This document shows positions 39,113 through 62,282 of a stretch of 64,000 nucleotides of DNA, in pieces. This DNA is from Brucella sp. 21LCYQ03. GTDB lineage: Bacteria; Pseudomonadota; Alphaproteobacteria; Rhizobiales; Rhizobiaceae. The notes beneath the pieces were generated by a model. That model ran no database searches. It saw nothing but the letters and a program-made list of their open reading frames with translations, and had not been told where the DNA came from. The DNA lies in NCBI RefSeq assembly GCF_023554105.1, contig NZ_JAMJWE010000008.1, positions 1 to 64,000 of the forward strand, written 5' to 3'. Position numbers and translations under genes: made by a program. How positions within the stretch are numbered: position 1 is the first letter of the stretch; each line of letters starts with the position of its first letter.

Positions 39113-39208
39113 GCCCACTTTCAATGGCTATCGTGCAGAGCCATATTCTGCGAGAACACTTTAAAAGTGCTTCTTTACGGACAGGACGGGCACTTGAGGA
39201 AAATGAAT

Positions 39209-40231
39209 ATGAAAAAGATAGGCTTTCTTTCATTCGGACATTGGTCGCCTTCGCCACAGTCGGGCACCCGCTCGGCAGGTGACGCGCTTTTGCAGTCGAT
39301 TGACTTGGCCGTTGCAGCTGAAGAACTTGGCGCAGACGGTGCTTATTTCCGCGTACACCATTTTGCACGCCAGCTTGCGTCGCCCTTTCCGCTGCTTGCA
39401 GCCGTGGGTGCAAAAACCAGTAAGATCGAGATAGGCACTGCCGTCATCGACATGCGCTATGAGAACCCGCTTTACATGGCGGAAGATGCCGGTGCTGCTG
39501 ATCTTATCTCGCAAGGCCGCCTGCAGCTTGGTCTGAGCCGTGGTTCGCCTGAGCAGGTGATCGATGGCTGGCGCTATTTCGGTTATGCACCAGAAGAAGG
39601 CGCAAGCGATGCCGATATGGGCCGTAAACATGGTGAGGTTTTCTTTGAGGCACTCAAAGGTCAGGGATTTGGCCAGCCAAACCCGCGTCCGATGTTCCCA
39701 AATCCTCCCGGTCTGTTGCGTCTTGAACCACATTCGGAAGGTCTACGCGACCGCATCTGGTGGGGTGCAGGCTCCAATGCGACCGCACGCTGGGCTGCAA
39801 AGCTTGGTATGAATTTGCAAAGCTCGACGCTGAAAGATGATGAAACGGGCGAACCGTTCCATGTCCAGCAGGCTGCGCAAATTCGTGCTTATCGTGAAGC
39901 CTGGAAAGAGGCCGGACATACCAGAACGCCACGCGTTTCAGTAAGCCGCAGCATCTTTGCACTGGTTGATGATCGCGACCGCGCTTATTTTGGTGGTGGC
40001 AGCAAGGAGCAGGATTCCATCGGTTATATTGATGAGAACACCCGCGCTATTTTTGGTCGCTCCTATGCGGCTGAACCGGATGCGCTGATCAAAGAGCTGG
40101 CTCAGGATGAAGCGGTTGCCGAAGCCGATACGCTATTGCTGACCGTGCCAAACCAGCTCGGCGTCGAATACAATGCACACGTGATTGAAGCGATCCTCAA
40201 GCATGTGGCACCGGCTCTCGGCTGGCGCTGA
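39209..40231 (+). CDS. LLM class flavin-dependent oxidoreductase
   Basis: The 340-aa protein is a luciferase-like TIM-barrel flavoprotein. It shows KKIGFLSFGHW at the start, ELGADGAYFRVHHFARQLASPFPLLAAVGAKT, the family loop IEIGTAVIDMRYENPLYMAEDAG and GRLQLGLSRGSPEQVIDGWRYFG. I chose the ATG at 39209 because GAGGA lies 8 bases upstream; an ATG at 39203 is too close. FMN is the likely cofactor; the substrate cannot be told. It is followed by a strong terminator and stands alone. Confidence 0.9.
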   Translation: MKKIGFLSFGHWSPSPQSGTRSAGDALLQSIDLAVAAEELGADGAYFRVHHFARQLASPFPLLAAVGAKTSKIEIGTAVIDMRYENPLYMAEDAGAADLISQGRLQLGLSRGSPEQVIDGWRYFGYAPEEGASDADMGRKHGEVFFEALKGQGFGQPNPRPMFPNPPGLLRLEPHSEGLRDRIWWGAGSNATARWAAKLGMNLQSSTLKDDETGEPFHVQQAAQIRAYREAWKEAGHTRTPRVSVSRSIFALVDDRDRAYFGGGSKEQDSIGYIDENTRAIFGRSYAAEPDALIKELAQDEAVAEADTLLLTVPNQLGVEYNAHVIEAILKHVAPALGWR

Positions 40232-40362: not shown

Positions 40363-42639
40363 TTAAAATCTGCCGGATACTCTGGCCGTTGCTCCGAGAG
40401 CATTTTCCCGGGTTGCAGTACGAATGAGATAGGGCGTGAATGACAGATCGACTGTGTCATTGATCGCATAGATCAGACTTGTGGATGCTGAACCTCGGGT
40501 GTGGGCAAAGTCCGAGTTGAATGATAGTCCGCCGATATAATCTGCTCTTGCGTTAAACTGCGGGTCATCGTGCGAAAGATCCTGTTCGATTTCAATATTA
40601 GCTGACCAGCGAAGCCGATTGTTGAGTGCTGCACTATAATTGGCACCCGCATAAACAGTCGTGAGCCGATAGGTCATATTGCTATATGTGAACGGAAACT
40701 CCGCATTGGTTTCGGTGTAGCCGTTCATGGTCACATCGCTATAACGCAGGCCGCCATAATAGCCAAAACGCGCATTGTTAAAGCTTAGATTTTCGGTGCG
40801 ACCGGCTTCCAATGTCGAGCTCCAGCCTTCTACGCGGCTTTCGCCGGTTCCAGCTTCGGTATAATCCAGGCGGGGTCTCATAATATCGGCATCATAGCGG
40901 TTGGCGGCGAGGGTAAAGCGCATATACCATTCGCCGGATGGAGTCTTGTCCTGCCACTGCGCATAAGCGCCGCCGCCGAAATTGTCGCTGCCGGAGTTGT
41001 ATCCGTCTGGTTGTTGACGCCAGAATGAATGCGCCATCGTCAAACCGGCCGAGAAATTTTCTGTAAAGCCGTGGCCCAGTGTTAAGCCAGACAAAAGGTC
41101 TTTCTGATCGCCAAAGCCGTTAAAATCTGTGAATTGCGTGTAACAGGTCTTACCTGCTTGATCCACATTACAGACCCCTTGCAACTTGCTGAGTGTGAGG
41201 CGCTGCGCTTCCATTGCGGAGAAACCAATATTTGCCAGCTTAAGAACCGTGGCAACCGTGTGATCGACGTCAATGATCACGGGCGTCTCAATTGCTGGCA
41301 CGGGTGCTTCTAGCGCTGGTTCTGTTGGAAATGGAGTTGGTGTGGGGCCAGAGCCAAGCTGTTCATCAGGTATTGTTCCTTGATCAGTTTCGCCCCCGGT
41401 TTCAGGCTTCGGTTCAGGCCCGGGTTCTGTTGGTGGTGTTCCGGGATTGACCACGGGCTCAATTATTGGCTCGCGTTTGGGGAACTTCCACAAGGTTGCA
41501 TGATGATTGCCATCTGCCGTTTCCGCCATTCCTGCAATCACAGTACCGTCCTCAGAAATATCCCATGCAACAGCGCTTGTTCCGCCTATTGTGCCGAGAT
41601 CGACCATGCCTTCATGCTCAGTCCAGCGGAAGGCACGCATTAACATCGTATCTGTATAGCTGTAGCCGACCAGTGTATTGCCATCAACCGTCATACTGAG
41701 CGCTTGAGAAAGACCGCTACCAAGGGAGTCGAGACTGATCATTCCTATTTGTGCGGTCCAGCGAAACGCCTGATTAGAGCCGTCATCGAATATGGCTGTT
41801 CCAGCGACAACATTTCCATCGTGAGAAACTAAATCTGCAATGCTTTGTTGGGAGCCTAAAAGCGAGTGTATATCAACCATGCCAGTTTGTGACGTCCAAC
41901 GGAATGCGTGTTGCCCGTTGTCGACAGTATCGCTTGTACCGACAACAACTGACCCGTCGGATGAAACACCACGGGCTGTTGAGTTATTGCCGCCAAGTGT
42001 ACCGAGGCTGAACATTCCTGAAGCTTGTGTCCATCGATACGCTCTCGATTCAAAAGTTTGAATTGTTGAATATCCAACAATTGTACTGCCATCAGAGGAA
42101 ACAGCATTAGCAAAGGATGATTCGCCACCCAATGTCCCAAGATTCATGAGGCCATCCTGAGGAGTCCAGCGAAAGGCATTCGTTGCGCTGTTCCCGGCAG
42201 TATGGCTATCACCAGCAACAACATTACCATCATAGGAAATGCCGTTGGCATAGGATGCCGTTCCTCCCAAGGTACCTATGTCGCGCATTCCGGTTTCCTC
42301 TGTCCACCAGAAGGCGTGGCTATCTGTTGGATTTGCAGAACTTATACCTGTTGCGGCTATTCCATTTGCTGAGACTGCCATGAGCGCTGTCGCGCCGCCT
42401 TCGATGAGTGAGCCAATATCCGCTACCCCGTCTGGCGTGACGATGAAAGACTTGTCGTAAGGGCCGGTGGAAGACATTCGACGCACGCCAAATACTTTTC
42501 CGTTTGCAGACACACTGACTGCATCAGCACGCGCGCCGCCAAATGAGCCATGAAGCTCATAACCAGGAGCCTCTGCAAACGCATAGGAACTCAGAGTTAC
42601 AAGTATTGATGAGTTTACAATTATCTTAGTTACTAACAT
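40363..42639 (-). CDS. HAF-repeat autotransporter
   Basis: The 758-aa protein has a signal peptide (SSILVTLSSYAFA, cleavage near residue 22). A passenger domain follows with about seven to eight HAF-type repeats between ~30 and 385 (patterns such as AFRWT..G-M..LGTLGG.SS-A.AVS-DG..VVG). A Pro/Gly/Glu-rich linker covers ~390-450. A C-terminal autotransporter beta-barrel covers ~480-758 (SAGLTMAHSFWRQ, GGLRYSDVTMNGYTE), ending VSGRF with the C-terminal aromatic. The repeats look like a beta-propeller. This would be surface-exposed, possibly an adhesin; that role is inferred. The upstream 270 bp are AT-rich. Confidence 0.88.
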   Translation of the reverse strand: MLVTKIIVNSSILVTLSSYAFAEAPGYELHGSFGGARADAVSVSANGKVFGVRRMSSTGPYDKSFIVTPDGVADIGSLIEGGATALMAVSANGIAATGISSANPTDSHAFWWTEETGMRDIGTLGGTASYANGISYDGNVVAGDSHTAGNSATNAFRWTPQDGLMNLGTLGGESSFANAVSSDGSTIVGYSTIQTFESRAYRWTQASGMFSLGTLGGNNSTARGVSSDGSVVVGTSDTVDNGQHAFRWTSQTGMVDIHSLLGSQQSIADLVSHDGNVVAGTAIFDDGSNQAFRWTAQIGMISLDSLGSGLSQALSMTVDGNTLVGYSYTDTMLMRAFRWTEHEGMVDLGTIGGTSAVAWDISEDGTVIAGMAETADGNHHATLWKFPKREPIIEPVVNPGTPPTEPGPEPKPETGGETDQGTIPDEQLGSGPTPTPFPTEPALEAPVPAIETPVIIDVDHTVATVLKLANIGFSAMEAQRLTLSKLQGVCNVDQAGKTCYTQFTDFNGFGDQKDLLSGLTLGHGFTENFSAGLTMAHSFWRQQPDGYNSGSDNFGGGAYAQWQDKTPSGEWYMRFTLAANRYDADIMRPRLDYTEAGTGESRVEGWSSTLEAGRTENLSFNNARFGYYGGLRYSDVTMNGYTETNAEFPFTYSNMTYRLTTVYAGANYSAALNNRLRWSANIEIEQDLSHDDPQFNARADYIGGLSFNSDFAHTRGSASTSLIYAINDTVDLSFTPYLIRTATRENALGATARVSGRF

Positions 42640-42910: not shown

Positions 42911-44089
42911 TCATTTCACACTGTAAATAGCCAACAGGCTCTTCATGCGGATAATTGCAAGCTCTGGGTCATCCAGCACATTGGCCTGATCTGCGAGGCG
43001 AAAAATATCCACATAATGTAGAATACTGCGTGCCGATTGCATTCCGGCGGGCATGGTGAAATGGCTTTGGTGTCCATTAAGCCAGGCGAGAAACACAACG
43101 CCTGCCTTGTAATACTGCGTCGGCGCTTCAAAGATTTTGCGCGATAGTGGCACGGTCGGCTCGATGATAGCACGGAAGCGGGCATTGTCACCGTCGGCGA
43201 GGGCGGCAAGCGCGCTTGAAGCCTGTGTTGCTACGGCATCGAAAATGCCAAGCAGCGCATGGCTATGCTTGTTGCCATCGCCTTCGATCAGGGGCGAATA
43301 GTTGAAATCATCCCCCGTGAAACAGAGGACGCCATCGGGGAGCCGGTCGCGCATTGCGATCTCGTAGCGCTCTTCGAGCAGTGAAATCTTGATGCCTTCA
43401 ACTTTGTCGCGATTGGCCTCTATAATGCCAATGACTGTATCAAGCGCATCTTCAAACTTGTCGGAACCCCAGTAACCTTTGAGTTGTGGGTCGAACATAT
43501 CGCCCAGCCAATGTAGTACGACCTTGTCGCGGGCATGGGTGAGAATATGGCCATAGACCTTGGCATAATCCTCTGGCGAGCGGGCGATGCGGGCGAGTGC
43601 GCGGCTGGCCATCAGAATGAAACGGCCGCCGTGTTTTTCGATGAATTCAGCCTGGGTTTCATAGGCCTTAATCACGTCATCAAGGCTTTTTGCCTCTGAC
43701 GGATCGAGATGGTCAGTGCCAGCGCCAGAGGCCAGATCAGCACCTGCTACGGTTTTGCTTTCTGCCAGCGAGCGGCGGATCAGCTCCTGCGCTCCGGCCC
43801 AGTTGAGACCCATGCCGCGTTGTGAAGTGTCCATCGCTTCCGCGATCTGAAAGCCGAGGCTCCAAAGGTGGTGTCGGAAGGCCATGGTCGTGTCCCAATC
43901 GATCGCTGGGTCGTTCCACGGATTACTGTCTTTGAGCGGGTCTGAAACCACATGTGCCGCAGCATAGGCAATGCGGTTGAAACGGGGAGGAGAGGCGGGG
44001 CGCGGTGTCGGTGTTCCAATTAAGCGATAAGGTTTTACACTGCCGTCAGCGAATGGCAGGGTCAGTGCTTTTTCTGATGATACGCTCAT
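42911..44089 (-). CDS. DUF993 / dihydrodipicolinate-synthase-like aldolase
   Basis: The 392-aa protein matches the DUF993 family, class I TIM-barrel aldolases related to dihydrodipicolinate synthase. RFILMASRALARIARSPEDY and VVLHWLGDMFDPQLKGYWG are recognisable. A lysine in KVEGIKISLL occupies the place of the Schiff-base lysine of DHDPS (GIKEAT-type). The reaction is unknown; retro-aldol cleavage of a sugar-acid-like compound is plausible. The ATG at 44089 is preferred, with GGAGG 6 bases upstream; the frame runs back to 44137. It diverges from the LacI gene across a region with two operators. Confidence 0.85.
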   Translation of the reverse strand: MSVSSEKALTLPFADGSVKPYRLIGTPTPRPASPPRFNRIAYAAAHVVSDPLKDSNPWNDPAIDWDTTMAFRHHLWSLGFQIAEAMDTSQRGMGLNWAGAQELIRRSLAESKTVAGADLASGAGTDHLDPSEAKSLDDVIKAYETQAEFIEKHGGRFILMASRALARIARSPEDYAKVYGHILTHARDKVVLHWLGDMFDPQLKGYWGSDKFEDALDTVIGIIEANRDKVEGIKISLLEERYEIAMRDRLPDGVLCFTGDDFNYSPLIEGDGNKHSHALLGIFDAVATQASSALAALADGDNARFRAIIEPTVPLSRKIFEAPTQYYKAGVVFLAWLNGHQSHFTMPAGMQSARSILHYVDIFRLADQANVLDDPELAIIRMKSLLAIYSVK

Positions 44090-44122
44090 GTCAGTCCTCC
44101 AGCTCCACGACGACATGAATAA

Positions 44123-44138
44123 TTTAGATCGTTCCAAA
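44123..44138. promoter_or_regulatory. Operator 1 in front of the DUF993 gene
   Basis: TTTAGATCGTTCCAAA is a near-palindrome (ideal arms TTTGGA/TCCAAA around TCGT). It lies 33 bp upstream of the DUF993 start and shares the core GATCGTTCCAA with the second copy at 44271. LacI-family regulators bind such palindromes. Confidence 0.65.
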
Positions 44139-44262
44139 TTTCAATATGGTGCTTAAAAAATGCGATTTCAGGCTCTGATTTTGCATTTAATGTCGAGAAA
44201 TGCTTCAAAAATTAAGGAAATCCGATGTCAAGAATATGGCAAATCCGTGTTTATCAAAAAAG

Positions 44263-44292
44263 TTGACAAATTTGGATCGTTCCAATTAACTT
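44263..44292 (+). promoter_or_regulatory. LacI promoter with operator 2
   Basis: TTGACA at 44263-44268 is a good -35 box. TTTGGATCGTTCCAAT at 44271-44286 is the second near-palindromic operator, placed between -35 and the likely -10 (near 44287). Binding there would block transcription, so the regulator probably represses its own operon. Confidence 0.65.
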
Positions 44293-44311
44293 AAGGGAAC
44301 AGGAGACAGAT

Positions 44312-46347
<2,036 letters not shown>

Positions 46348-46352
46348 AAATT

Positions 46353-47954
46353 ATGAGCAAACATATTTCATTTGCGGAAGCAGCAGCACTTATTCCCGAC
46401 AACGCTGTCGTTTCGGTGTCGTCATCGAGCGGTCTTGGCTGCCCGGATATGATGCTGAAGGCCATTGGCGAGCGGTTTGATGAAACCGGCCATCCAAAGA
46501 ATATCACCACGCTGCACCCGATTGCTGCGGGTGATATGAGTGGCATTAAGGGTGTCGATTACATCGCCAAAAAGGGGCTTTTGAAGAAGATCATCGGTGG
46601 TTCTTATCCGTCAGGGCCATCGAGCGCCGAGCCGCCGCTGATCTGGCAGATGATCACCAATAACGAGGTTCCGGCCTATAATATTCCGTCCGGTATTCTG
46701 TTCGACATGCATCGTGAGGCAGCTGCCAAGCGTCCCGGTGTGCTGACCAAAGTGGGGCTTGATACTTTCGTTGATCCCAAGCGTCAGGGATCGGCAATGA
46801 ACGACAAGGCGCGTGAGGAGCCGGTCGTCAAGCAGGTCAGTTTTGAGGGTGAGAACTGGCTTTATTTCCCCAATATCGTGCCGCATGTGACGATCATTCG
46901 CGCCACAACCGCAGATGAACGCGGCAATCTCACCTATGAGCATGAGGGTGCATATCTTGGTGGGCTGGATCAGGCGCTGGCTGCGCGCAACAATGGCGGC
47001 ATCGTCATTGCGCAGGTGAAGCGTATTGCGAAAGAAGGCACGCTGAAACCGCATGATGTGCGTGTTCCGGGCGTTCTGGTTGACTATATCGTCGTTGATC
47101 CCGACCAGAAGCAGACAACGCAGACACTTTACGATCCGGCAATTTCCGGCGAGATTTTCTGTCCGCTTGATACGTTCCGCTTGGCCGAATTCAATATTCA
47201 GAAGGCGATTGCGCGGCGTGTCGCGCAGGAATTGCAGACAGGGAGTGCGGTGAACTTAGGTTTTGGTATTTCTGCCAATGTGCCGCGCATTTTGCTGGAA
47301 GAAGGTCTGCATGGGGCCGTAACATGGGTGATTGAGCAGGGGGCTGTTGGCGGCGTGCCGCTTCTCGATTTTGCCTTTGGCTGTGCATCCAATGCAGATG
47401 CCTATATGCCGTCACCCTATCAATTCACCTATTTTCAGGGCGCAGGCTTCGACGCCTCGCTTCTGTCCTTCCTTGAGATCGGACGCGATGGTTCGGTCAA
47501 TGTCTCGAAGCTTTCATTCCGGCCGCATGTGACGGCTGGTGCTGGTGGCTTTGTCGATATTACTGCACGGGCCAAAAAGATTGTCTTCTCCGGCATGTTC
47601 AATGCGGGCGCGAAATTGTCGGTCGCTGATGGCAAGCTGGTGATCGAGAAGGAAGGCAAGCTCAAAAAGCTCGTTAATGAGGTCGAGCATGTCACTTTCT
47701 CCGGCCCGCGTGGCGTCGAGCAGGGGCAGGACATTACCTATGTCACCGAACGCGCGGTCCTGAAGCTGACGCCGGAAGGCATTGTGCTGACCGAGATCGC
47801 GCCGGGTGTAGATTTGCAGACGCATATTCTGGACCAGGCTGAGTTTCCACTGATTGTTTCGGATCAGCTTAAAATCATGGATGAGGCCTTGTTTCGTGAC
47901 GAGCCAATCGGGCTTGAACTGCCGCAAAAGCCTGCGCGAAAGCTGGAGGCTTAA
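46353..47954 (+). CDS. Family I acyl-CoA:carboxylate CoA-transferase (YdiF-like)
   Basis: The 533-aa protein is a fused alpha-beta CoA-transferase of the 3-oxoacid/YdiF type. GCPDMMLKAIGERFDETGHPK and GVDYIAKKGLLKKIIGGSYP are in the alpha part (~25-90). The active-site glutamate, E328, lies in WVIEQGAVGGVPLLDFAFG. VNVSKLSFRP and VTFSGPRGVEQGQDITYVTERAVLKL are in the beta part. I chose the ATG at 46353, 6 bases after the previous stop. The acyl substrate is unknown. It abuts the enoyl-CoA hydratase gene with no gap. Confidence 0.93.
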   Translation: MSKHISFAEAAALIPDNAVVSVSSSSGLGCPDMMLKAIGERFDETGHPKNITTLHPIAAGDMSGIKGVDYIAKKGLLKKIIGGSYPSGPSSAEPPLIWQMITNNEVPAYNIPSGILFDMHREAAAKRPGVLTKVGLDTFVDPKRQGSAMNDKAREEPVVKQVSFEGENWLYFPNIVPHVTIIRATTADERGNLTYEHEGAYLGGLDQALAARNNGGIVIAQVKRIAKEGTLKPHDVRVPGVLVDYIVVDPDQKQTTQTLYDPAISGEIFCPLDTFRLAEFNIQKAIARRVAQELQTGSAVNLGFGISANVPRILLEEGLHGAVTWVIEQGAVGGVPLLDFAFGCASNADAYMPSPYQFTYFQGAGFDASLLSFLEIGRDGSVNVSKLSFRPHVTAGAGGFVDITARAKKIVFSGMFNAGAKLSVADGKLVIEKEGKLKKLVNEVEHVTFSGPRGVEQGQDITYVTERAVLKLTPEGIVLTEIAPGVDLQTHILDQAEFPLIVSDQLKIMDEALFRDEPIGLELPQKPARKLEA

Positions 47955-48731
47955 ATGGCTCAACGGATAGAAATCTCGACTGAGAACCACATTGCTGTCA
48001 TGACGATCCGGCGGCCCGAAAAGCTCAATGCGTTTGATATTGAGCTTTTGCAGGAATTATCGTCTGCCTGTGATCAGGTGGAAGCGGAGTGCACCGTGCG
48101 GGTTGCGATCCTGACCGGCGAGGGCAAAGCCTTTTCCGCCGGTGGCGACATCAAGGCATGGGGCGGCATGGAACCGGCAGAATTCGGCCATGCCTGGGTG
48201 CGTTATGGTCATCGGGTGTTTGAACGATTGGCGACTTTGCGTGTGCCATTGATCGCAGCGATGAATGGTCATGCTTTGGGTGGTGGTTTGGAACTGGCAG
48301 GTGCCGCCGATATTCGCATTGTTGAGCGACAGGCGAAAATTGGCCTGCCGGAAACATCGCTCGGTATGATCCCCGGCTGGTCGGGCACACAGCGTCTTGT
48401 GCGCCGTTTTGGTGCGCAGATCGTGCGCCGCATGGTGCTGGGCGGTGAAATGTTCACGGCCGAGGAAGCGCTATCGCATGGGCTGGTCGATCATGTGGTG
48501 GAGACCGGCAGCGCTTTACAGGCAGCGCAAGATTATGCGGCGCGGGTGGCAAAACGCGGACCGGCTGCGCTCGAAATCTCCAAATTGATGCTGTCGGTCG
48601 CCAATGGCGAGGACAATGGCGCAGCCGTAGAGGCACTGGGGTCTATCCTTGTTGCCAAAACCGGCGATCTGCAAGAAGGCGTGCGCTCATTTAGCGAAAA
48701 ACGCGAAGCGAATTTTGAAGGAAAATGGTGA
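47955..48731 (+). CDS. Enoyl-CoA hydratase/isomerase-like (crotonase) protein
   Basis: The 258-aa crotonase-fold enzyme has the oxyanion-hole segments KAFSAGGDIKAWGGM and NGHALGGGLELAGAADIRI. Both glutamates used by true hydratases are present: E113 in GGLELAGA and E133 in GLPETSLG. Hydration or retro-type lyase activity on a CoA thioester is likely. It starts directly after the CoA-transferase stop (TAA-ATG) and overlaps the aldehyde dehydrogenase in TGATG. Confidence 0.93.
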   Translation: MAQRIEISTENHIAVMTIRRPEKLNAFDIELLQELSSACDQVEAECTVRVAILTGEGKAFSAGGDIKAWGGMEPAEFGHAWVRYGHRVFERLATLRVPLIAAMNGHALGGGLELAGAADIRIVERQAKIGLPETSLGMIPGWSGTQRLVRRFGAQIVRRMVLGGEMFTAEEALSHGLVDHVVETGSALQAAQDYAARVAKRGPAALEISKLMLSVANGEDNGAAVEALGSILVAKTGDLQEGVRSFSEKREANFEGKW

Positions 48732-50245
48732 TGAGCATTGTCGTAAAACCACAGCCGCTGAATGGGCTGGAAGTGCGTGAATTTTCGATGCTGATTGATG
48801 GCAAATGGGTTGGCAGTCAAAGCGGCGAGACAATCGAACGTGTGGCGCCCGGCCATGGCGTCACGGTAAGCTGCTATCCTGCTGGCAACAAGGCCGATGT
48901 GGAGCGCGCTGTAGCGGCTGCGCGTAAGGCTTTTGACGACGGGCGCTGGTCGTCGAAAACGGCTTCGCAGCGTTCGCTGATTTTGTTGAAAGCTGCCGAT
49001 CTGATAGAAGCGCGGGCCGAAGAGCTTGCTTATCTCGATGCAATTGAAGCCGGCAAACCAATTTCTCAGGTGCGTGGTGAGATTGCCGGTTCCGTCGATA
49101 TCTGGCGCTATGCGGCAGCGCTTGCGCGTGATCTGCATGGCGAGAGCTACAATAATCTGGGCGATGGGACGCTGGGTGTCGTGCTGCGTGAGGCAATTGG
49201 GGTTGTTTCCATCATTACGCCTTGGAATTTCCCGTTCCTGATCGTGGGCCAGAAGCTGCCATTTGCTTTGGCCGCGGGCTGCACGGCAGTGGTGAAGCCT
49301 TCGGAACTTACATCCGGCTCGACATTGCTTTTGGGTGAAATTCTGGCTGAGGCAGGCGTACCGGACGGTGTTGTCAACATCATCACCGGAACGGGTGCCG
49401 ATGTCGGCCAGCATATGAGCACGCATCCAGATGTGGACATGGTGTCGTTCACTGGCTCCACAGGCGTGGGCAAGCTGACCATGGCCAATGCAGCGCAAAC
49501 GCTGAAAAAAGTATCGCTGGAGCTGGGTGGCAAGAACCCGCAAATCTTGTTCCCGGATGCGGATATGGATGCCTTTATCGATGCTGCGGTGTTCGGCGCA
49601 TGGTTCAATGCGGGCGAGTGCTGCAATGCCGGTTCGCGACTGATCGTGCATCGCTCGATTGTTGATGAGATTGTCGGGCGTGTCGCTGATCTGTCGAAGA
49701 AAGTGATCGTCGGCGATCCGCTCGATGTCAGCACGCAGGTGGGCGCGATCATCACGCCACAGCATTTGAGCAAGGTTGGCACCTATGTCGATCAGGCCAA
49801 AAAGGCGGGTGCTGCAATTGCCCATGGCGGCGATGTACTGAATCTCGGCCTTGGCCAATATATGGGACCGACCATTATTGCAGGTGTGAAAGCCGACATG
49901 GCCGTTGCGCGTGAGGAAGTGTTCGGACCGGTTCTGTCGGTGCTGTCTTTTGATACGGTGGATGAGGCAATTTCGATTGCCAATGCGGTTGATTATGGCT
50001 TGTCGGCTGGCGTGTGGAGCCGCGATTTCGATATTTGCATGAACATTGGCCGCAAGGTGCGGGCTGGCACAGTCTGGATGAACACCTTCATGGACGGCAC
50101 ACCGGAACTGCCTTTTGGCGGTTATCGCCAGTCGGGTCTGGGCCGCGAGCTGGGCCGTCATGCGGTGGAGGATTATACCGAGACCAAGACGCTCAACATG
50201 CATATCGGTGCGCGCACCGGCTGGTGGATGCCGCAGGCTAAGTAG
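48731..50245 (+). CDS. NAD(P)-dependent aldehyde dehydrogenase
   Basis: The 504-aa enzyme oxidises an aldehyde to an acid. IITPWNFPF (~162), ELGGKNPQ (~262), the catalytic cysteine C298 in FNAGECCNAGSR, and PFGGYRQSGLGRE near the C terminus are clear. The start at 48731 overlaps the enoyl-CoA hydratase stop; another ATG lies two codons earlier. In this operon it could convert an aldehyde made by the GMC or SDR oxidoreductases, supplying the acid to the CoA-transferase. That order is my inference. Confidence 0.95.
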   Translation: MSIVVKPQPLNGLEVREFSMLIDGKWVGSQSGETIERVAPGHGVTVSCYPAGNKADVERAVAAARKAFDDGRWSSKTASQRSLILLKAADLIEARAEELAYLDAIEAGKPISQVRGEIAGSVDIWRYAAALARDLHGESYNNLGDGTLGVVLREAIGVVSIITPWNFPFLIVGQKLPFALAAGCTAVVKPSELTSGSTLLLGEILAEAGVPDGVVNIITGTGADVGQHMSTHPDVDMVSFTGSTGVGKLTMANAAQTLKKVSLELGGKNPQILFPDADMDAFIDAAVFGAWFNAGECCNAGSRLIVHRSIVDEIVGRVADLSKKVIVGDPLDVSTQVGAIITPQHLSKVGTYVDQAKKAGAAIAHGGDVLNLGLGQYMGPTIIAGVKADMAVAREEVFGPVLSVLSFDTVDEAISIANAVDYGLSAGVWSRDFDICMNIGRKVRAGTVWMNTFMDGTPELPFGGYRQSGLGRELGRHAVEDYTETKTLNMHIGARTGWWMPQAK

Positions 50246-50248
50246 GGA

Positions 50249-51742
50249 GTGACGGCTTTGGGAGGACAGCCGGATATCGTCATCATCGGATCGGGTATCG
50301 GTGGCGCAACAATGGCCGCTGGTCTGGCCGCATCAGGTGCGGAGATTCTTGTTCTGGAGGCTGGGGAGCATTTACCGGACAGGCCGGAAAATCGCGATCC
50401 GCGTGCCATTTTCCAGCGCGGTTTCTTTCGCCCGAAAGAGCTTTGGTATGAAGCGGATGGAACGCCTTTTAATCCCGGCAATTATTATAATGTCGGGGGC
50501 AATTCCAAATTTTATGGTGCAGTGCTGGTGCGCTATCGGCGCGAGGATTTTGAGGAGCTTGCGCATCTTGAAGGCGTGTCTCCGGCGTGGCCTTTTGGCT
50601 ACGATGAGCTTGAGCCCTGGTATTGCAAGGCGGAAGAGCTTTTTCAGGTGCGGGGCGAGTTGGGCGACGACCCAACCGAGCCGTATCATTCAAAGCCTTA
50701 TTCTTATCCGCCAATCCGTGATGAACCGCCGATTGCCGATGTGCGGACGCGGCTGAAAAAGGCGGGGCTGCATCCGGCTTCCTTGCCATTGGGTGTTGAT
50801 ATTGAGCGCTGGCTGGGGAAGGCCAAAACGCCGTGGGACGCGCATCCCAACAGCAATGATGGCAAGATGGATGCGGAAACCTGCCCGTTAGCACTTGCGC
50901 TCAAACATCCGAATGTCCGGCTTCAAACATCAGCGCGTGTGACGAGGCTGGAAACAGCGCCGGATGGCAAAACCATTACAGCCGTTCATTATGTGAAGAA
51001 CGGAGAGACGCTGGTCCTGCGCCCTAAGCTCGTCGTTTTATCCGCCGGTGCGGTGCAGTCGGCGGCACTTTTGCTGCGTTCAGGATTGGCGAATCGCTCG
51101 GATCAGGTGGGCCGAAATTTTATGAACCACAATGCCAGTGCGGTGATCGGGTTTGATCCGCGCTATCGCAATGACAGCGTCTACCAGAAGACCTTTGGCT
51201 TTAACGATTACTATCTCAGCGATGGTGCTGGCGGGCCGCCGCTTGGCAATGTGCAATTGCTGGGGCGGGTGTCGGGTGCGATACTGAAAGCGAACATGCC
51301 ACGTTTGCCCGAATGGATGCTGAACCGCATTGCCGGGCATACGATTGATTTTTACGCGATGAGCGAAGATCTGCCGTCGCCGGAAAGTCGCGTGAGCGTG
51401 GATGGTGATCGCATCATTCTGCATTGGGTGCGTTCCAACTGGAAGGCGCATCTTATGCTGGTTGATAAGCTCAAATCTGCGCTGCGTGCAGCAGGGTTTC
51501 CGGTGGTGCTTTCGCGGGCGTTTGACAGGCGAACACCATCGCATCAATGCGGCACGGTACGTATCGGCAATAATCCAGCAACAGCGCCGCTTGATCCTTA
51601 TTGCCGTGCTTATGATCACCCTAATCTTTATGTGGTCGATGCGTCGTTTCTGCCAACATCGGCGGCGGTTAATCCGGCGCTGACCATTGCCGCGCAAGCC
51701 TTGCGCGTAGCAGACCATTTGAACCGGGAGGTGCTTGCATGA
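50249..51742 (+). CDS. GMC-family FAD oxidoreductase 1
   Basis: The 497-aa protein has the FAD-binding VIIGSGIGGATMAAGLAASG (~11-30) and the GMC C-terminal domain, with the active-site pair H432 (SHQCGTVRIG) and N475 (AAVNPALTIAAQALR). It is of the soluble branch resembling pyranose/glucoside oxidoreductases or gluconate-dehydrogenase large subunits (CRAYDHPNLYVVDASFLPTS). The GTG start has AGGGA upstream. It overlaps the SDR by ATGA. The electron acceptor is unknown because no small or cytochrome subunit is encoded nearby. Confidence 0.92.
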   Translation: MTALGGQPDIVIIGSGIGGATMAAGLAASGAEILVLEAGEHLPDRPENRDPRAIFQRGFFRPKELWYEADGTPFNPGNYYNVGGNSKFYGAVLVRYRREDFEELAHLEGVSPAWPFGYDELEPWYCKAEELFQVRGELGDDPTEPYHSKPYSYPPIRDEPPIADVRTRLKKAGLHPASLPLGVDIERWLGKAKTPWDAHPNSNDGKMDAETCPLALALKHPNVRLQTSARVTRLETAPDGKTITAVHYVKNGETLVLRPKLVVLSAGAVQSAALLLRSGLANRSDQVGRNFMNHNASAVIGFDPRYRNDSVYQKTFGFNDYYLSDGAGGPPLGNVQLLGRVSGAILKANMPRLPEWMLNRIAGHTIDFYAMSEDLPSPESRVSVDGDRIILHWVRSNWKAHLMLVDKLKSALRAAGFPVVLSRAFDRRTPSHQCGTVRIGNNPATAPLDPYCRAYDHPNLYVVDASFLPTSAAVNPALTIAAQALRVADHLNREVLA

Positions 51743-52503
51743 ACCGTCAAAGACCTGTGGCGCTGGTGACTGGCGGGCGGCGTGGTATCGGGCTTGGCAT
51801 AGCACGCGCGCTTGCCGCCAAGGGCTTTGATCTGGTGATTACCGATCGCGAGTGTGATGAGGTTGCCATTCATGAATTGCGTGAACTTGGTGCAAAAGTG
51901 GCTTTCTTTGAAAGCGATCTTGCTGCTGTCGAAACACATGAAGCGACGGTTGCAGCCGTTGTGAATGAGCTTGGCGGCATCGATTGTCTCGTTAACAATG
52001 CCGGTATGGGTTCTGTCGAGCGTGGTGATTTCCTTGGATTGAAGCCGAAGAATTTTGACACAATTATCGGTGTGAACCTGCGCGGCACGGTGTTTTTTAC
52101 GCAAGCGGTGGTGAAAGTCATGCTGGCCGTAACCGAAGTGCGGTTTCCACGCAGTATCGTCACGATCAGTTCGGTTTCGTCAGTGATGACTTCGCCCGAA
52201 AGGCTTGATTACTGCATCAGCAAAGCCGGTCTGACAGCCTTTGTGCAGGGGCTTGCGCTTCGCCTCGCCGAAGCACGGATCGGTGTGTTCGAGGTGCGTC
52301 CCGGTATCATCCGCACCGATATGACGGCAAAAGTTACCGAGCGTTATGACGGGCTGATTGAGGCTGGTCTGGTGCCGATGAAACGCTGGGGCGAGGCGGG
52401 AGACGTCGGAGCCATTGTGGCGGGGCTTGCCGGTGGCGATTTCATTTTTGCGACGGGATCGGCAATCAATGCCGATGGTGGCCTGTCGATTGCGAAGCTT
52501 TAG
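51739..52503 (+). CDS. Short-chain dehydrogenase/reductase 1
   Basis: The 254-aa classical SDR has cofactor motif TGGRRGIGLGIARAL (~11-25), NNAG and the catalytic YxxxK with Y158 and K162 (YCISKAG). Serine in TISSVSS precedes it. The C terminus has TGSAINADGGLSI, the common SDR end. It lies between the two GMC oxidoreductases, so it may act on a neighbouring hydroxyl or ketone of the same substrate. Confidence 0.94.
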   Translation: MNRQRPVALVTGGRRGIGLGIARALAAKGFDLVITDRECDEVAIHELRELGAKVAFFESDLAAVETHEATVAAVVNELGGIDCLVNNAGMGSVERGDFLGLKPKNFDTIIGVNLRGTVFFTQAVVKVMLAVTEVRFPRSIVTISSVSSVMTSPERLDYCISKAGLTAFVQGLALRLAEARIGVFEVRPGIIRTDMTAKVTERYDGLIEAGLVPMKRWGEAGDVGAIVAGLAGGDFIFATGSAINADGGLSIAKL

Positions 52504-52523
52504 TTTCTCGGGAGGAGAAACGC

Positions 52524-54161
52524 ATGAAGTACGACTATATCATTGTTGGCGGCGGGCCTGCCGGTTGCGTTCTTGCCAATCGTCTGAGCGAAGATGCAGC
52601 GATCAAAGTGCTGCTGCTGGAGGCAGGTGGAAGCGACTGGAACCCTCTGTTCCACATGCCTGCCGGTTTTGCCAAAATGACCAAAGGTGTAGCGAGCTGG
52701 GGCTGGGAAACCGTTCCGCAGAAGCATCTCAAAAACCGTGTGTTGCGCTATACGCAGGCAAAAGTCATTGGCGGCGGCTCCAGCATCAATGCGCAGATTT
52801 ATACACGCGGCAATGCAGCCGATTATGATCTATGGGCTACTGAGGACGGCTGTACCGGCTGGGACTATCGCCATGTGCTGCCCTATTTCAAACGCGCCGA
52901 AGACAATCAGCGTTTCAATGATGATTTTCACTCCTATGGCGGGCCGCTTGGCGTTTCGATGCCTTCCGCACCATTGCCGATTTGCGACGCCTATATCCGC
53001 GCGGGTCAAGGACTCGGCATTCCGTACAATCCGGATTTCAATGGTCGTGAGCAGGCAGGCGTCGGCTTTTATCAGCTCACCCAGCGCAATCGCCGCCGCT
53101 CGTCAGCATCCCTTGCCTATCTCGCGACGATCAGGGACCGCAAGAACCTTATCGTGCGGATGAATGCGCCGGTGCGCAGTATCGATCTGGAAAAGACCTT
53201 AGTCACCGGCGTTACACTGATGAACGGCGAGGTTTTGCGCGCAAACCGTGAGGTGATTGTCTCGTCCGGCGCTATCGGATCACCGAAGCTTCTGCTGCAA
53301 TCGGGCATTGGCCCTGCCGATCATCTCAAAAAGGTCGGCGTGAATGTAAAACATGATCTGCCGGGTGTGGGCGAAAACATGCAGGATCACCTCGATCTGT
53401 TTGTTATTGCCGAATGTACAGGCGATCACACCTATGATGGCGTGGCAAAGTTGCATCGGACGCTGAGCGCTGGCCTGCAATATATCTTTCTGCGCTCTGG
53501 CCCGGTGGCGTCCAGCCTCTTTGAAACCGGCGGCTTCTGGTATGCTGATCCGGATGCCCGCTCACCGGATATCCAGTTTCATCTGGGGCTTGGTTCGGGC
53601 ATTGAAGCTGGCGTCGAGAAGCTCAAGAATGCAGGCGTGACGCTTAATTCTGCCTATCTGCATCCGCGTTCGCGTGGAACCGTGCGGCTGGCTTCCAATG
53701 ATCCGGCTGCAGCCCCCCTGATCGATCCGAATTACTGGAGTGATCCGCATGATCGCAAGATGTCGCTTGAAGGCCTGAAGATCGCGCGCGAAATCATGCA
53801 GCAGGCTGCATTAAAGCCCTATGTCATGGCGGAGCGTCTGCCGGGGCTAAAGGTCGTCAGTGATGATGATCTGTTCGATTATGCCTGCGCAAATGCCAAG
53901 ACCGATCACCATCCGGTCGGCACCTGCAGGATGGGGACGGATGCGATGGCCGTTGTCGATCTGGAACTCAAAGTGCGCGGGCTGGAAGGTTTGCGGGTTT
54001 GCGACAGCTCGATCATGCCGCGCGTTCCCTCGTGCAATACCAATGCGCCGACCATCATGGTCGGCGAAAAGGGTGCGGATATTATTCGCGGTTTTGATGC
54101 GCTGCCGCCCACTGTGTTTTCATGGGAGAAGAACGAACATAAGCGGCGCGCGCGGGGTTAG
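52524..54161 (+). CDS. GMC-family FAD oxidoreductase 2 (choline-dehydrogenase-like)
   Basis: The 545-aa protein starts with FAD motif DYIIVGGGPAGCVLANRLSE (~4-23). It contains VIGGGSSINAQIYTRGNAADYD and the GMC signatures around residue 250 (VIVSSGAIGSPKLLLQSGIGP). The active-site histidine pair H462/H463 is in HHPVGTCRMG, and the asparagines in SCNTNAPTIM close the site. It resembles choline and alcohol dehydrogenases (BetA/AlkJ). GGAGGAG precedes the ATG at good distance. Its stop overlaps the convergent GFA gene stop by 4 bases. It is the last gene of the operon. Confidence 0.94.
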   Translation: MKYDYIIVGGGPAGCVLANRLSEDAAIKVLLLEAGGSDWNPLFHMPAGFAKMTKGVASWGWETVPQKHLKNRVLRYTQAKVIGGGSSINAQIYTRGNAADYDLWATEDGCTGWDYRHVLPYFKRAEDNQRFNDDFHSYGGPLGVSMPSAPLPICDAYIRAGQGLGIPYNPDFNGREQAGVGFYQLTQRNRRRSSASLAYLATIRDRKNLIVRMNAPVRSIDLEKTLVTGVTLMNGEVLRANREVIVSSGAIGSPKLLLQSGIGPADHLKKVGVNVKHDLPGVGENMQDHLDLFVIAECTGDHTYDGVAKLHRTLSAGLQYIFLRSGPVASSLFETGGFWYADPDARSPDIQFHLGLGSGIEAGVEKLKNAGVTLNSAYLHPRSRGTVRLASNDPAAAPLIDPNYWSDPHDRKMSLEGLKIAREIMQQAALKPYVMAERLPGLKVVSDDDLFDYACANAKTDHHPVGTCRMGTDAMAVVDLELKVRGLEGLRVCDSSIMPRVPSCNTNAPTIMVGEKGADIIRGFDALPPTVFSWEKNEHKRRARG

Positions 54162-61088: not shown

Positions 61089-62282
61089 TTAGTTTCCGCC
61101 GAGCTTCCACCAGGCCTTTTTCTTTTCAGGCGCTGGTGCTGCCACAGTTTCTGCAACGGTGTTTGCGGTGGCCATAGGCGCTACACTGGCCGGATTCTGC
61201 TGCGGAACAGGAACAGAAGCTGTCTGTGTTGCATCAACGACCGCTGGTGTTGCTGCAATTGCGGTGGCTGGCTGCACCGAGATCGGTGTTGCCGCAGGCG
61301 CAATATCCGGGGCATTTGGCGTTTCAGCCGATGAAGGCGAAAGCGACGGTGGTTCACGCGTTACTTTTTCGCCGCGTGCACGCGCGGCACTCCATGCCGA
61401 GACGAGCTTCGCTTCGGTTATGCCCTGAATGGATGGTGCAGGCTTCTTCTGTGCCGCACTAAATGCCGACTGGAACGTCTTTTCATACGATGTCGTGTAG
61501 GCCATCGATTCAGCATTGGCCGAAGGCGGGCAGGCATCGGTTGCTGAAAGCGGCTGGCCATCCGGTGTCGGTACATTGAAGACATAACGCTTTTCGCAGA
61601 CGTCAACTTTTGGCGGCACCTTGGTCGCTTCAAAAGTGTCATAGCCCTGCTTGAGCATTTTCCAGAAGGCGTAATTCGGGTCGCTCTTATAACGCGCCAT
61701 ATTGGCTGCGGTCATACGGAACGGGAAGGCTTGAATCTGGAAGTCACGCTGGCCGCCCTTGAAAGCATCGCGGCCAAAGGCATAAATCTCGCTCACGCTC
61801 TCATCAGTCATCGAATAGCAGCCCGACGACGAACAAGCGCCATGGACCATCAGATTCTGGCCGGTGCGGTTATGCGCGCGGTCATAGGCGTTCGGAAAGC
61901 CGATGTTGAAAGCAAGGTGATATTGCGAATTTGGGTTCATCTGGCCGGGGCGAACATTATAGAAGCCCTCTGGCGCCTGACGATCACCCTCTACGAATTT
62001 TGGACCAAGTTTACCGGACCATTTGCAAATCTCATAAGAGGCAATCTGGTCGTATTTGCCGTTATTCTTCTGCTTCCAGACTTCGAGGACGCCTTCTTCC
62101 TTGAAAATACGAACCATGACCGGCGAAGTGCGTGTCATGCCCTTCGACTTCATCTTGGCGACCATTTTCTCGGAAAGTGGCTTTTCAGCCCGAAGGCTGA
62201 GATCGGAAACGGACGAACCCTGACAACCCGCAAGCAGAGCGGAGGCCATGAGAGTTGCAAAAAGTGCGGTTCTGATCTTCAT
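61089..62282 (-). CDS. L,D-transpeptidase family lipoprotein (YafK-like)
   Basis: The 397-aa protein has a lipoprotein signal with lipobox LLAGC (C20). The YkuD-type L,D-transpeptidase domain (~50-200) carries H147-G148 and S153-G-C155 in NLMVHGACSSSGCYSMTDE, the catalytic motif with a tyrosine in place of the usual Arg after it, as in the YafK branch. A low-complexity Ala/Pro/Thr-rich tail (~310-390) follows, ending KKKAWWKLGG. Murein cross-linking or lipoprotein-murein attachment/removal is inferred. Possibly co-transcribed with TusA. Confidence 0.88.
   Translation of the reverse strand: MKIRTALFATLMASALLAGCQGSSVSDLSLRAEKPLSEKMVAKMKSKGMTRTSPVMVRIFKEEGVLEVWKQKNNGKYDQIASYEICKWSGKLGPKFVEGDRQAPEGFYNVRPGQMNPNSQYHLAFNIGFPNAYDRAHNRTGQNLMVHGACSSSGCYSMTDESVSEIYAFGRDAFKGGQRDFQIQAFPFRMTAANMARYKSDPNYAFWKMLKQGYDTFEATKVPPKVDVCEKRYVFNVPTPDGQPLSATDACPPSANAESMAYTTSYEKTFQSAFSAAQKKPAPSIQGITEAKLVSAWSAARARGEKVTREPPSLSPSSAETPNAPDIAPAATPISVQPATAIAATPAVVDATQTASVPVPQQNPASVAPMATANTVAETVAAPAPEKKKAWWKLGGN

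What the first reader, a model, noticed from the sequence alone, without database searches (positions are those of the whole stretch)
42911..54161. Putative uncharacterised catabolic operon linking GMC/SDR oxidation to CoA-thioester chemistry
Seven tightly packed enzyme genes follow a LacI regulator: Gfo/Idh/MocA dehydrogenase, family I CoA-transferase, crotonase, aldehyde dehydrogenase, GMC oxidoreductase, SDR, second GMC oxidoreductase. A DUF993 aldolase-like gene diverges from the regulator. The catalytic residues I checked are intact, and neighbours overlap or abut. I know no named pathway with this set. A polyol- or glycoside-like substrate could be oxidised, turned into an acid, activated by the CoA-transferase, hydrated and cleaved. 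No transporter gene is present, so uptake must be encoded elsewhere. The cluster's conservation and substrate are open.
Basis: partly seen in the sequence, partly recalled or inferred. Interest (0 to 1): 0.72.

Follow-up and report, generated by a model that had tools for sequence, protein, structure and literature searches.

The report
Conserved operon for breaking down anhydrosugars
A soil-bacterial gene cluster found in many Alphaproteobacteria contains a known enzyme that reduces an unusual starch-derived sugar (1,5-anhydrofructose) plus an unexplained set of partner enzymes, and it is a strong candidate for the unmapped aerobic route by which such bacteria use these sugars.

Summary
Seven intact enzyme genes run head to tail behind a LacI gene, with DUF993 diverging. 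CoA-transferase and hydratase are adjacent in 87 of 87 related loci, and the cluster recurs across other Alphaproteobacteria. A LacI palindrome, TTGGAACGTTCCAA, sits between -35 and -10 of both divergent promoters, so DUF993 belongs to the regulon. Relatives carry a sugar transporter inside the operon; its binding protein matches one solved with glucose. The window genome has that transporter on another contig. I propose aerobic catabolism of 1,5-anhydrohexoses: reduction to 1,5-anhydromannitol, oxidation at C6, CoA activation, dehydration and ring opening to a 2-keto-3-deoxy acid, ending in pyruvate and glycerate. The substrate class is fairly likely; the route is inference. A published route (reduction, then C1 hydroxylation to mannose by an unidentified enzyme) is the main rival. 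My paper searches found no description of the operon. New variant of a known kind; directly testable in S. meliloti.

The parts
42911..44089 (-). DUF993 protein (392 aa), DHDPS-fold, putative Schiff-base lyase/aldolase, diverging from the LacI gene
44124..44137 (.). LacI operator copy 1 (TTAGATCGTTCCAA, 2 mismatches to TTGGAACGTTCCAA), inside the -35/-10 spacer of the DUF993 promoter
44272..44285 (.). LacI operator copy 2 (TTGGATCGTTCCAA, 1 mismatch), inside the 17-base spacer of the operon promoter
   Evidence: with the 16-base pattern the only places in the genome with 0 or 1 mismatch are these two
44263..44268 (+). -35 box TTGACA of the operon promoter
   Evidence: same spacing to the operator with 5 or 6 of 6 matches in 84 of 86 loci
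44312..45367 (+). LacI-family regulator, presumed repressor of both divergent units
   Evidence: PF00356 and Peripla_BP_3
45346..46347 (+). 1,5-anhydro-D-fructose reductase (AFR), Gfo/Idh/MocA family
   Evidence: PDB 2glx 561 bits and 4koa 543 bits, next best 115 bits; 75% and 72% identity
46344..47954 (+). Family I CoA-transferase (YdiF/FadX-like), catalytic Glu331
   Evidence: PF01144; PDB 2ahu YdiF 384 bits; 85-86% identity to five relatives
47955..48731 (+). Enoyl-CoA hydratase (crotonase) with both hydratase glutamates, Glu113 and Glu133
   Evidence: PF00378; best PDB hit 3-hydroxypropionyl-CoA dehydratase 5zai
48725..50245 (+). Aldehyde dehydrogenase
   Evidence: PF00171 566 bits
50249..51742 (+). 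GMC oxidoreductase 1 (GMC1), nearest solved relatives FAD glucose dehydrogenase and fructose dehydrogenase large subunit
   Evidence: PF05199/PF00732; PDB 6a2u 125 bits, 7w2j 75 bits
51739..52503 (+). SDR oxidoreductase (NCBIfam NF009386, over cut-off)
52524..54161 (+). GMC oxidoreductase 2 (GMC2), choline/alcohol dehydrogenase-like; S. meliloti orthologue annotated L-sorbose dehydrogenase
   Evidence: PF00732/PF05199; annotation in PMC12542648

Best explanation
This is the catabolic operon that houses the alphaproteobacterial 1,5-anhydro-D-fructose reductase. It works as an aerobic pathway for 1,5-anhydrohexoses (1,5-anhydrofructose AF, 1,5-anhydromannitol AM, probably 1,5-anhydroglucitol AG). 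SHOWN by sequence: enzyme families and conserved active-site residues; conserved gene order; a common LacI operator in both divergent promoters; a glucose-type CUT1 transporter inside the operon of relatives. INFERRED: the sugar enters through the CUT1 transporter and relieves LacI repression. GMC1 oxidises a ring hydroxyl (for AG, C2, giving AF); AFR reduces AF at C2 to AM. GMC2 and ALDH oxidise the primary C6 alcohol to the acid. The CoA-transferase makes its thioester. The hydratase, acting as a dehydratase, removes the beta hydroxyl (old C4), leaving a cyclic enol ether that opens on hydration to a 2-keto-3-deoxyhexonate. Reading the AM skeleton from C6, its C3 and C2 hydroxyls become C4 and C5 of D-2-keto-3-deoxygluconate (KDG) exactly; AG would give the L-threo isomer. 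That would explain why a reductase making the manno product sits here. KDG is then split into pyruvate and a C3 unit, by DUF993 or an SDR branch, or by ordinary Entner-Doudoroff enzymes, and glycerate is phosphorylated by glycerate 2-kinase.
For: AFR identity: 2glx/4koa score 561/543 bits against 115 for the next chain; 2glx is 94% identical to operon-encoded AFRs of L044, L050 and L068 (the last two Ensifer), 4koa 99.7% to the S. meliloti operon copy. Conservation: CoA-transferase plus hydratase adjacent in 87 of 87 loci, AFR in 74, DUF993 in 66. Of 43 distant GMC1 loci, the 33 at 55% identity or more carry GMC2 in 32, the CUT1 genes in 29, CoA-transferase in 26 and hydratase in 26; the 9 below 46% carry none above my thresholds. 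Regulation: operator exact 85 times in 87 stretches against 0 for each of 40 shuffled palindromes. Transporter: in-operon binding protein of L028 78% identical to Oant_3817 solved with glucose. Sugar-acid end: a MOFRL-type glycerate 2-kinase-like gene (Pfam over cut-off, NCBIfam below cut-off) in S. meliloti L002 and 8 of 33 distant loci; one locus (L227) adds an FAA-hydrolase-family gene beside CoA-transferase, hydratase, SDR, DUF993, GMC2 and the kinase, as in pathways that cleave 2,4-diketo-3-deoxy acids (recalled). Both hydratase glutamates are invariant. Published physiology: Rhizobiaceae metabolise AF starting with such a reductase (PMC12441222 passage).
Against: No enzyme of the operon other than AFR is known to me to have been assayed on these sugars, and no metabolite has been seen. 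The published route after AM is C1 hydroxylation to mannose, not C6 oxidation. AFR was not found in 13 of 87 loci (one cut on that side); in L096, L146 and L168 another Gfo/Idh gene plus an FAD protein is present instead (L185 has the pair too but is cut), so AF cannot be the only substrate. DUF993 lacks the pyruvate-binding motif and tyrosine of DHDPS, and its usual neighbours elsewhere are a Gfo/Idh gene and an AP_endonuc_2 gene (12 and 14 of 16 stretches), which suggests keto-sugars more than keto-acids. Glycerate kinase is absent from the window cluster (the genome has one, 69% identical, on C334). The S. meliloti binding-protein gene was reported induced by dextrin, not by an anhydrosugar. 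Two P450 matches exist elsewhere in the genome, and a luciferase-like monooxygenase gene lies 2.7 kb from the cluster.
Confidence: 0.45

Rival explanations
1. Published route: AF is reduced to AM by AFR, AM is hydroxylated at C1 by an oxygenase encoded elsewhere to give D-mannose, and the rest of the operon serves another or a parallel substrate.
For: Stated for Rhizobiaceae in PMC12441222, citing Kuhn 2006, with the hydroxylase called P450-like and still unidentified. The window genome holds a P450 on contig C112 and a partial match on C57. A luciferase-like monooxygenase gene lies at 39167-40231, outside the cluster; it is also near the cluster in 14 of the 20 nearest loci L008-L027.
Against: No oxygenase is among the nine genes, nor among the recurrent neighbours that I annotated; not every neighbour was annotated. 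The luciferase-like gene was found near none of the other loci searched except L049 at 30%, so it cannot be the shared step. The route leaves the co-regulated CoA-transferase, hydratase, ALDH and two GMC genes unexplained.
Confidence: 0.2
2. Keto-sugar route: GMC1 or a Gfo/Idh enzyme oxidises a ring carbon of a glucose-like sugar, DUF993 forms a Schiff base with the ketone and cleaves or dehydrates it, and the CoA enzymes only process the resulting short acid (for example a 3-hydroxy acid).
For: DUF993 elsewhere sits with a Gfo/Idh gene (12 of 16) and an AP_endonuc_2 gene (14 of 16); it lacks the keto-acid binding motif of DHDPS; the hydratase's best solved relative is 3-hydroxypropionyl-CoA dehydratase.
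Against: No AP_endonuc_2 gene is among the nine window genes or the recurrent neighbours annotated around GMC1, and DUF993 was not found in 21 of 87 loci that keep the CoA genes (one cut on that side), so it seems not to be needed upstream of them.
Confidence: 0.2
3. The substrate is a ketose or osone such as L-sorbose: GMC2 and ALDH make 2-keto-gulonate through sorbosone, and AFR reduces osones.
For: GMC2 of S. meliloti is annotated L-sorbose dehydrogenase and ALDH as sorbosone dehydrogenase in Rhizobium ACO-34A. AFR's action on osones is recalled from the Kuhn 2006 abstract, not from a call.
Against: Annotations only; a 2-keto-gulonate route needs no CoA-transferase or hydratase; the binding protein matches a structure with glucose.
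Confidence: 0.1

Closest known systems
1,5-anhydro-D-fructose reductase of Sinorhizobium morelense (PDB 2glx; source organism and EC 1.1.1.292 recalled)
   Same: The window AFR is 75% identical over 331 residues, with Lys94 and His180 conserved; the characterised enzyme's close relatives lie in the same operon
   Different: Of the operon only this enzyme is known to me as characterised; the steps after 1,5-anhydromannitol are not mapped to genes
Anaerobic 1,5-anhydroglucitol/anhydromannitol pathway of gut bacteria (PTS plus glycyl-radical enzymes YbiW/PflD)
   Same: Same substrate class (PMC12441222 passage)
   Different: Phosphorylation and radical ring cleavage under anaerobiosis; here flavin oxidation and CoA thioesters
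Non-phosphorylative Entner-Doudoroff lower branch (KDG aldolase, glycerate 2-kinase) and diketo-hydrolase pathways (recalled)
   Same: DHDPS-fold DUF993, glycerate 2-kinase-like gene in some relatives, FAA-hydrolase family gene in one locus
   Different: KDG would be reached by a CoA-dependent ring opening; DUF993 lacks the DHDPS pyruvate motif
DUF993 clusters with Gfo/Idh and AP_endonuc_2
   Same: Shared DUF993 (window protein 52% identical to solved 4dnh, SMc04132, over 372 residues)
   Different: A CoA-transferase of this operon's type was labelled in only 1 of the 16 stretches (L227)

Membership tests
1,5-anhydro-D-fructose reductase | Much closer to the characterised enzyme than to other Gfo/Idh/MocA members | tested here: met
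   561 bits to 2glx, best chain of another name 115 bits; 75% identity
1,5-anhydro-D-fructose reductase | Conserved EKP lysine and active-site histidine | tested here: met
   K94 86 of 86, H180 87 of 87
1,5-anhydro-D-fructose reductase | NADPH-dependent reduction of AF to 1,5-anhydromannitol | not testable with these tools
   needs an assay
Family I CoA-transferase | CoA_trans domain and catalytic glutamate | tested here: met
   PF01144; E331 114 of 114; that this Glu is the catalytic one is recalled
Enoyl-CoA hydratase | Both catalytic glutamates present | tested here: met
   E113 113 of 113, E133 114 of 114
DHDPS/NAL pyruvate aldolases (for DUF993) | DHDPS fold | tested here: met
DHDPS/NAL pyruvate aldolases (for DUF993) | Schiff-base lysine | tested here: met
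   K250 aligns with the DHDPS lysine in weak sequence alignments and is conserved 77 of 77
DHDPS/NAL pyruvate aldolases (for DUF993) | GTTGE pyruvate-binding motif and catalytic tyrosine | tested here: not met
   MDTAQRG/MDTSQRG and MASRAL stand in their place
Published Rhizobiaceae AF pathway (reductase plus C1 hydroxylase) | Oxygenase gene linked to the reductase gene | tested here: inconclusive
   none among the nine genes or annotated recurrent neighbours; a luciferase-like monooxygenase gene nearby in the window and 14 of 20 nearest loci but not in Rhizobiaceae loci; P450 matches unlinked
Non-phosphorylative Entner-Doudoroff lower branch | Glycerate 2-kinase linked to the cluster | tested here: inconclusive
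   present in L002 and 8 of 33 distant loci, absent from the window cluster, 69% homologue on C334

The most novel reading that the evidence does not exclude
A CoA-thioester pathway that opens a cyclic sugar ether: the C6 acid of 1,5-anhydromannitol is activated by a CoA-transferase and dehydrated by a crotonase so that the ring falls open to D-KDG. It would be an aerobic, phosphate-free and oxygenase-free route for 1,5-anhydrosugars, spread across Alphaproteobacteria.
Probability: 0.22. Interest if true: 0.78.

Novelty: new variant of a known kind. Interest (0 to 1): 0.6.

Why it matters
A 2025 review calls the enzyme that acts on 1,5-anhydromannitol in aerobic Rhizobiaceae still unidentified, and says that a probiotic lowering 1,5-anhydroglucitol (relevant to the neutropenia of glycogen storage disease Ib) is unlikely to succeed unless an aerobic enzyme for it is found (passages). 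This operon supplies a short, ordered list of candidate enzymes, a transporter, a regulator and its operator, with a counterpart in the laboratory species S. meliloti (L002), so an open biochemical question becomes directly testable. It also gives DUF993, a family with a solved structure and no assigned function in Pfam, a defined pathway context.

Tried and rejected
Paper searches for DUF993 (0 papers), the regulon, the gene set, S. meliloti locus tags (2 papers each), anhydrosugar terms: no listed title or passage seen describes the operon. These cover open-licence papers only; Kuhn 2006 and Mauchline 2006 were not read (not held for the ids tried; Mauchline not looked up).

Absence of any oxygenase as an argument against the published route: weakened. 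The genome has one P450 match and one partial one, and a luciferase-like monooxygenase gene lies at 39167-40231, separated from DUF993 by one gene; it is found near the cluster in 14 of the 20 nearest loci, and elsewhere among the loci searched only in L049 at 30%.

DUF993 as an ordinary pyruvate aldolase: weakened by the missing motif. The profile comparison with four DHDPS paralogues of the genome gave probability 1.6% and the best DHDPS chain in the profile search had E 0.05, so the kinship rests on fold.

The transporter on contig C13 does not carry the operon's operator (0 sites in L090); a different LacI-type palindrome, GACAACGTTGTC, lies upstream. The second LacI that is found next to the transporter in many relatives has no close match in this genome (best 23%). 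So co-regulation of that transporter with the operon is not shown.

DUF993-by-glycerate-kinase association (6, 5, 2, 15 in 28 loci, Fisher p 0.03) is weak: related genomes, cut edges, chosen loci.

Consensus promoter and terminator scans were at chance level and were not used; within the window alone the operator pattern at 3 mismatches is not above chance either (6 against 3.2 expected).


Full report
What is there. The window carries DUF993 (42911-44089, minus), and on the plus strand LacI, AFR, CoA-transferase, enoyl-CoA hydratase, ALDH, GMC1, SDR and GMC2 (44312-54161). Adjacent plus-strand genes overlap or lie within 20 bases, and 532 bases separate GMC2 from the next plus-strand gene. 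The host belongs with the Ochrobactrum-type relatives of Brucella: the CoA-transferase is 97-98% identical to copies in Brucella cytisi, Ochrobactrum chromiisoli and Brucella pituitosa.

The key identification. The Gfo/Idh/MocA gene matches two solved chains named 1,5-anhydro-D-fructose reductase at 561 and 543 bits; the third chain scores 115. 2glx is 75% identical to the window protein and 94% to operon-encoded proteins of L044, L050 and L068; L050 and L068 are Ensifer. 4koa is 99.7% identical to the operon copy of S. meliloti L002. The characterised AFR therefore belongs to this operon type. A 2025 review says that Rhizobiaceae metabolise 1,5-anhydrofructose by reducing it to 1,5-anhydromannitol, then hydroxylating C1 with a still unidentified P450-like enzyme to give mannose, citing Kuhn 2006 (passage seen in PMC12441222; Kuhn 2006 itself not held).

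Conservation. Megablast against plasmids found 7 records, and I fetched 6. A scan of species genomes with the CoA-transferase profile confirmed 326 places, of which the best 80 were kept. Over these 86 loci plus the window, CoA-transferase and hydratase are adjacent in 87 of 87, LacI is present in 86, ALDH in 86, AFR in 74, DUF993 in 66 and the CUT1 binding protein inside the cluster in 58. Flanks were 10 kb and some contigs shorter, so missing genes are partly cut off. The window and its 20 nearest loci (L008-L027), and L045, L055 and L063, run from ALDH straight to the GMC genes without the transporter. GMC1 profiles found 4 of 289 genomes in the class sample, 34 of 398 in the phylum sample and 34 of 249 in the order sample, the window genome included each time and the samples overlapping. 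I fetched 43 stretches of these hits, not all. In 33 with GMC1 at 55% identity or more, GMC2 is present in 32, the CUT1 genes in 29, CoA-transferase in 26, hydratase in 26, SDR in 24, ALDH in 21, AFR in 14, DUF993 in 10, the glycerate-kinase gene in 8; edges are cut, so these are lower bounds. One stretch at 48% (L174) has most of the set. In the 9 below 46% none of these partners passes the thresholds. So the transporter and the two GMC enzymes are the most constant part, CoA-transferase, hydratase and ALDH come next, and AFR, SDR, DUF993 and glycerate kinase vary.

Variants. In L096, L146, L168 and L185 a levoglucosan-dehydrogenase-like Gfo/Idh gene (310 bits, below the 650 cut-off) and an FAD_binding_2 protein are found and SDR is not; none of the 25 loci with SDR has this pair. 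In L153, L157, L159 and L171 a TPP enzyme and a histidinol-dehydrogenase-like gene stand before CUT1 and GMC1 and no CoA genes are found. In L227 CoA-transferase, hydratase, SDR, DUF993, AP_endonuc_2, GMC2, an FAA-hydrolase-family gene, a glycerate-kinase-like gene and an MFS sugar transporter lie together without GMC1.

Regulation. A palindrome, TTGGAACGTTCCAA, occurs with up to 2 mismatches in front of LacI in 86 of 86 loci that have the LacI gene, and a second copy lies on the DUF993 side in 65 of the 66 with DUF993. Counts in the 87 stretches are 85 exact, 128 with up to 1 and 168 with up to 2 mismatches; 40 palindromes with shuffled halves average 0, 0.15 and 2.5, at most 0, 2 and 12. Many loci are close relatives, so counts are not independent; yet copies also stand before AFR, CoA-transferase or GMC1 in distant loci such as L158, L163, L167, L168, L170 and L173, while other distant loci (for example L150, L152, L155) show none. 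In the window the sites are 44124-44137 and 44272-44285, the only places in the genome with 0 or 1 mismatch to WTTGGAWCGTTCCAAW. Taken alone within the window the 3-mismatch count is not above chance (6 against 3.2 expected); the case rests on conservation. The operator fills the spacer between -35 and -10 on both sides: the -35 box stands at the same distance with 5 or 6 of 6 matches in 84 of 86 loci on the LacI side and with 4 or 5 of 6 in 65 of 65 on the DUF993 side. This is how a LacI repressor would block both promoters, and it makes DUF993 part of the regulon.

Possible oxygenases. None of the nine genes is one. A luciferase-like monooxygenase gene at 39167-40231 lies on the other side of a 758-aa gene from DUF993; a relative at 82-95% identity is found near the cluster in 14 of the loci L008-L027, and elsewhere among the loci searched only L049 matches, at 30%. 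It is not under the operator as far as seen. Since the Rhizobiaceae loci lack it, it is not the shared hydroxylase, but a local role is not excluded.

Mechanism. The proposed route is in Best explanation. The stereochemical point is my own derivation, not a tool result: turning the Fischer projection of AM end over end places its C3 and C2 hydroxyls at C4 and C5 with the D-erythro arrangement of KDG, whereas the glucitol would give L-threo. The route gives nearly every conserved enzyme a task (the SDR's is the least defined) and fits the loss of DUF993 and glycerate kinase in species that presumably have ordinary Entner-Doudoroff enzymes (general knowledge, not tested here). Against it stand the published mannose route, the loci without AFR, the altered DUF993 pocket and the lack of any assay. 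I give 0.45 to the substrate class together with the oxidise-then-CoA logic, and about 0.2 to the exact ring-opening step.

Literature. I saw passages only of PMC12441222, PMC4960864, PMC12542648 and PMC4560400, and search listings otherwise. PMC12542648 lists SMc04390-92 and SMc04132 in a table of PhaR-affected genes; PMC4560400 includes SMc04401 as a chromosomal regulator with a predicted regulon. No listing named the operon as a pathway.

Noticed in passing
L153, L157, L159, L171: A sister cluster: TPP enzyme, histidinol-dehydrogenase-like protein, CUT1 genes, GMC1 and (in three of the four) GMC2. G330 and G760 hold it besides the CoA version; substrate unknown.
   Followed up: partly
L096, L146, L168, L185: A levoglucosan-dehydrogenase-like gene plus a fumarate-reductase-like FAD protein is present where the SDR is absent and may do the same job by other chemistry.
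   Followed up: partly
L028-L087, transporter slot: Two binding-protein lineages about 63% identical occupy the same slot in different Rhizobiaceae. In 36 loci a second divergent LacI gene is present, 28 of them with an AACGTT-centred palindrome before the binding-protein gene; others have neither: a swapped transporter.
   Followed up: partly
window 39167-40231 (+): Luciferase-like monooxygenase gene, also near the cluster in 14 of 20 nearest loci; L229, a DUF993 locus without this operon, has another Bac_luciferase gene next to DUF993.
   Followed up: partly
L002 (CP090106.1): The 3.7-Mb S. meliloti Ak57 record is titled pSymB, but the operon's regulator is listed as chromosomal in PMC4560400 (SMc04401, if my gene-order match is right); the label is probably wrong.
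   Followed up: no
window 40363-42639 (-): 758-aa protein with repeated GTLGG motifs that looks like an autotransporter; no Pfam match.
   Followed up: no
window 61092-62282 (-): 397-aa open frame with no Pfam match next to an ACCA gene.
   Followed up: no
proteins P0111-P0120: DUF993 relatives at 83-84% identity are listed for classical Brucella species among others; whether the operon is intact there was not examined.
   Followed up: no
L004 8592-9747 and L006 10972-12565: DUF993 in Rhizobium sp. ACO-34A and the CoA-transferase in Rhizobium sp. SL42 match in separate pieces and are not annotated as genes, so broken genes or sequencing errors.
   Followed up: no
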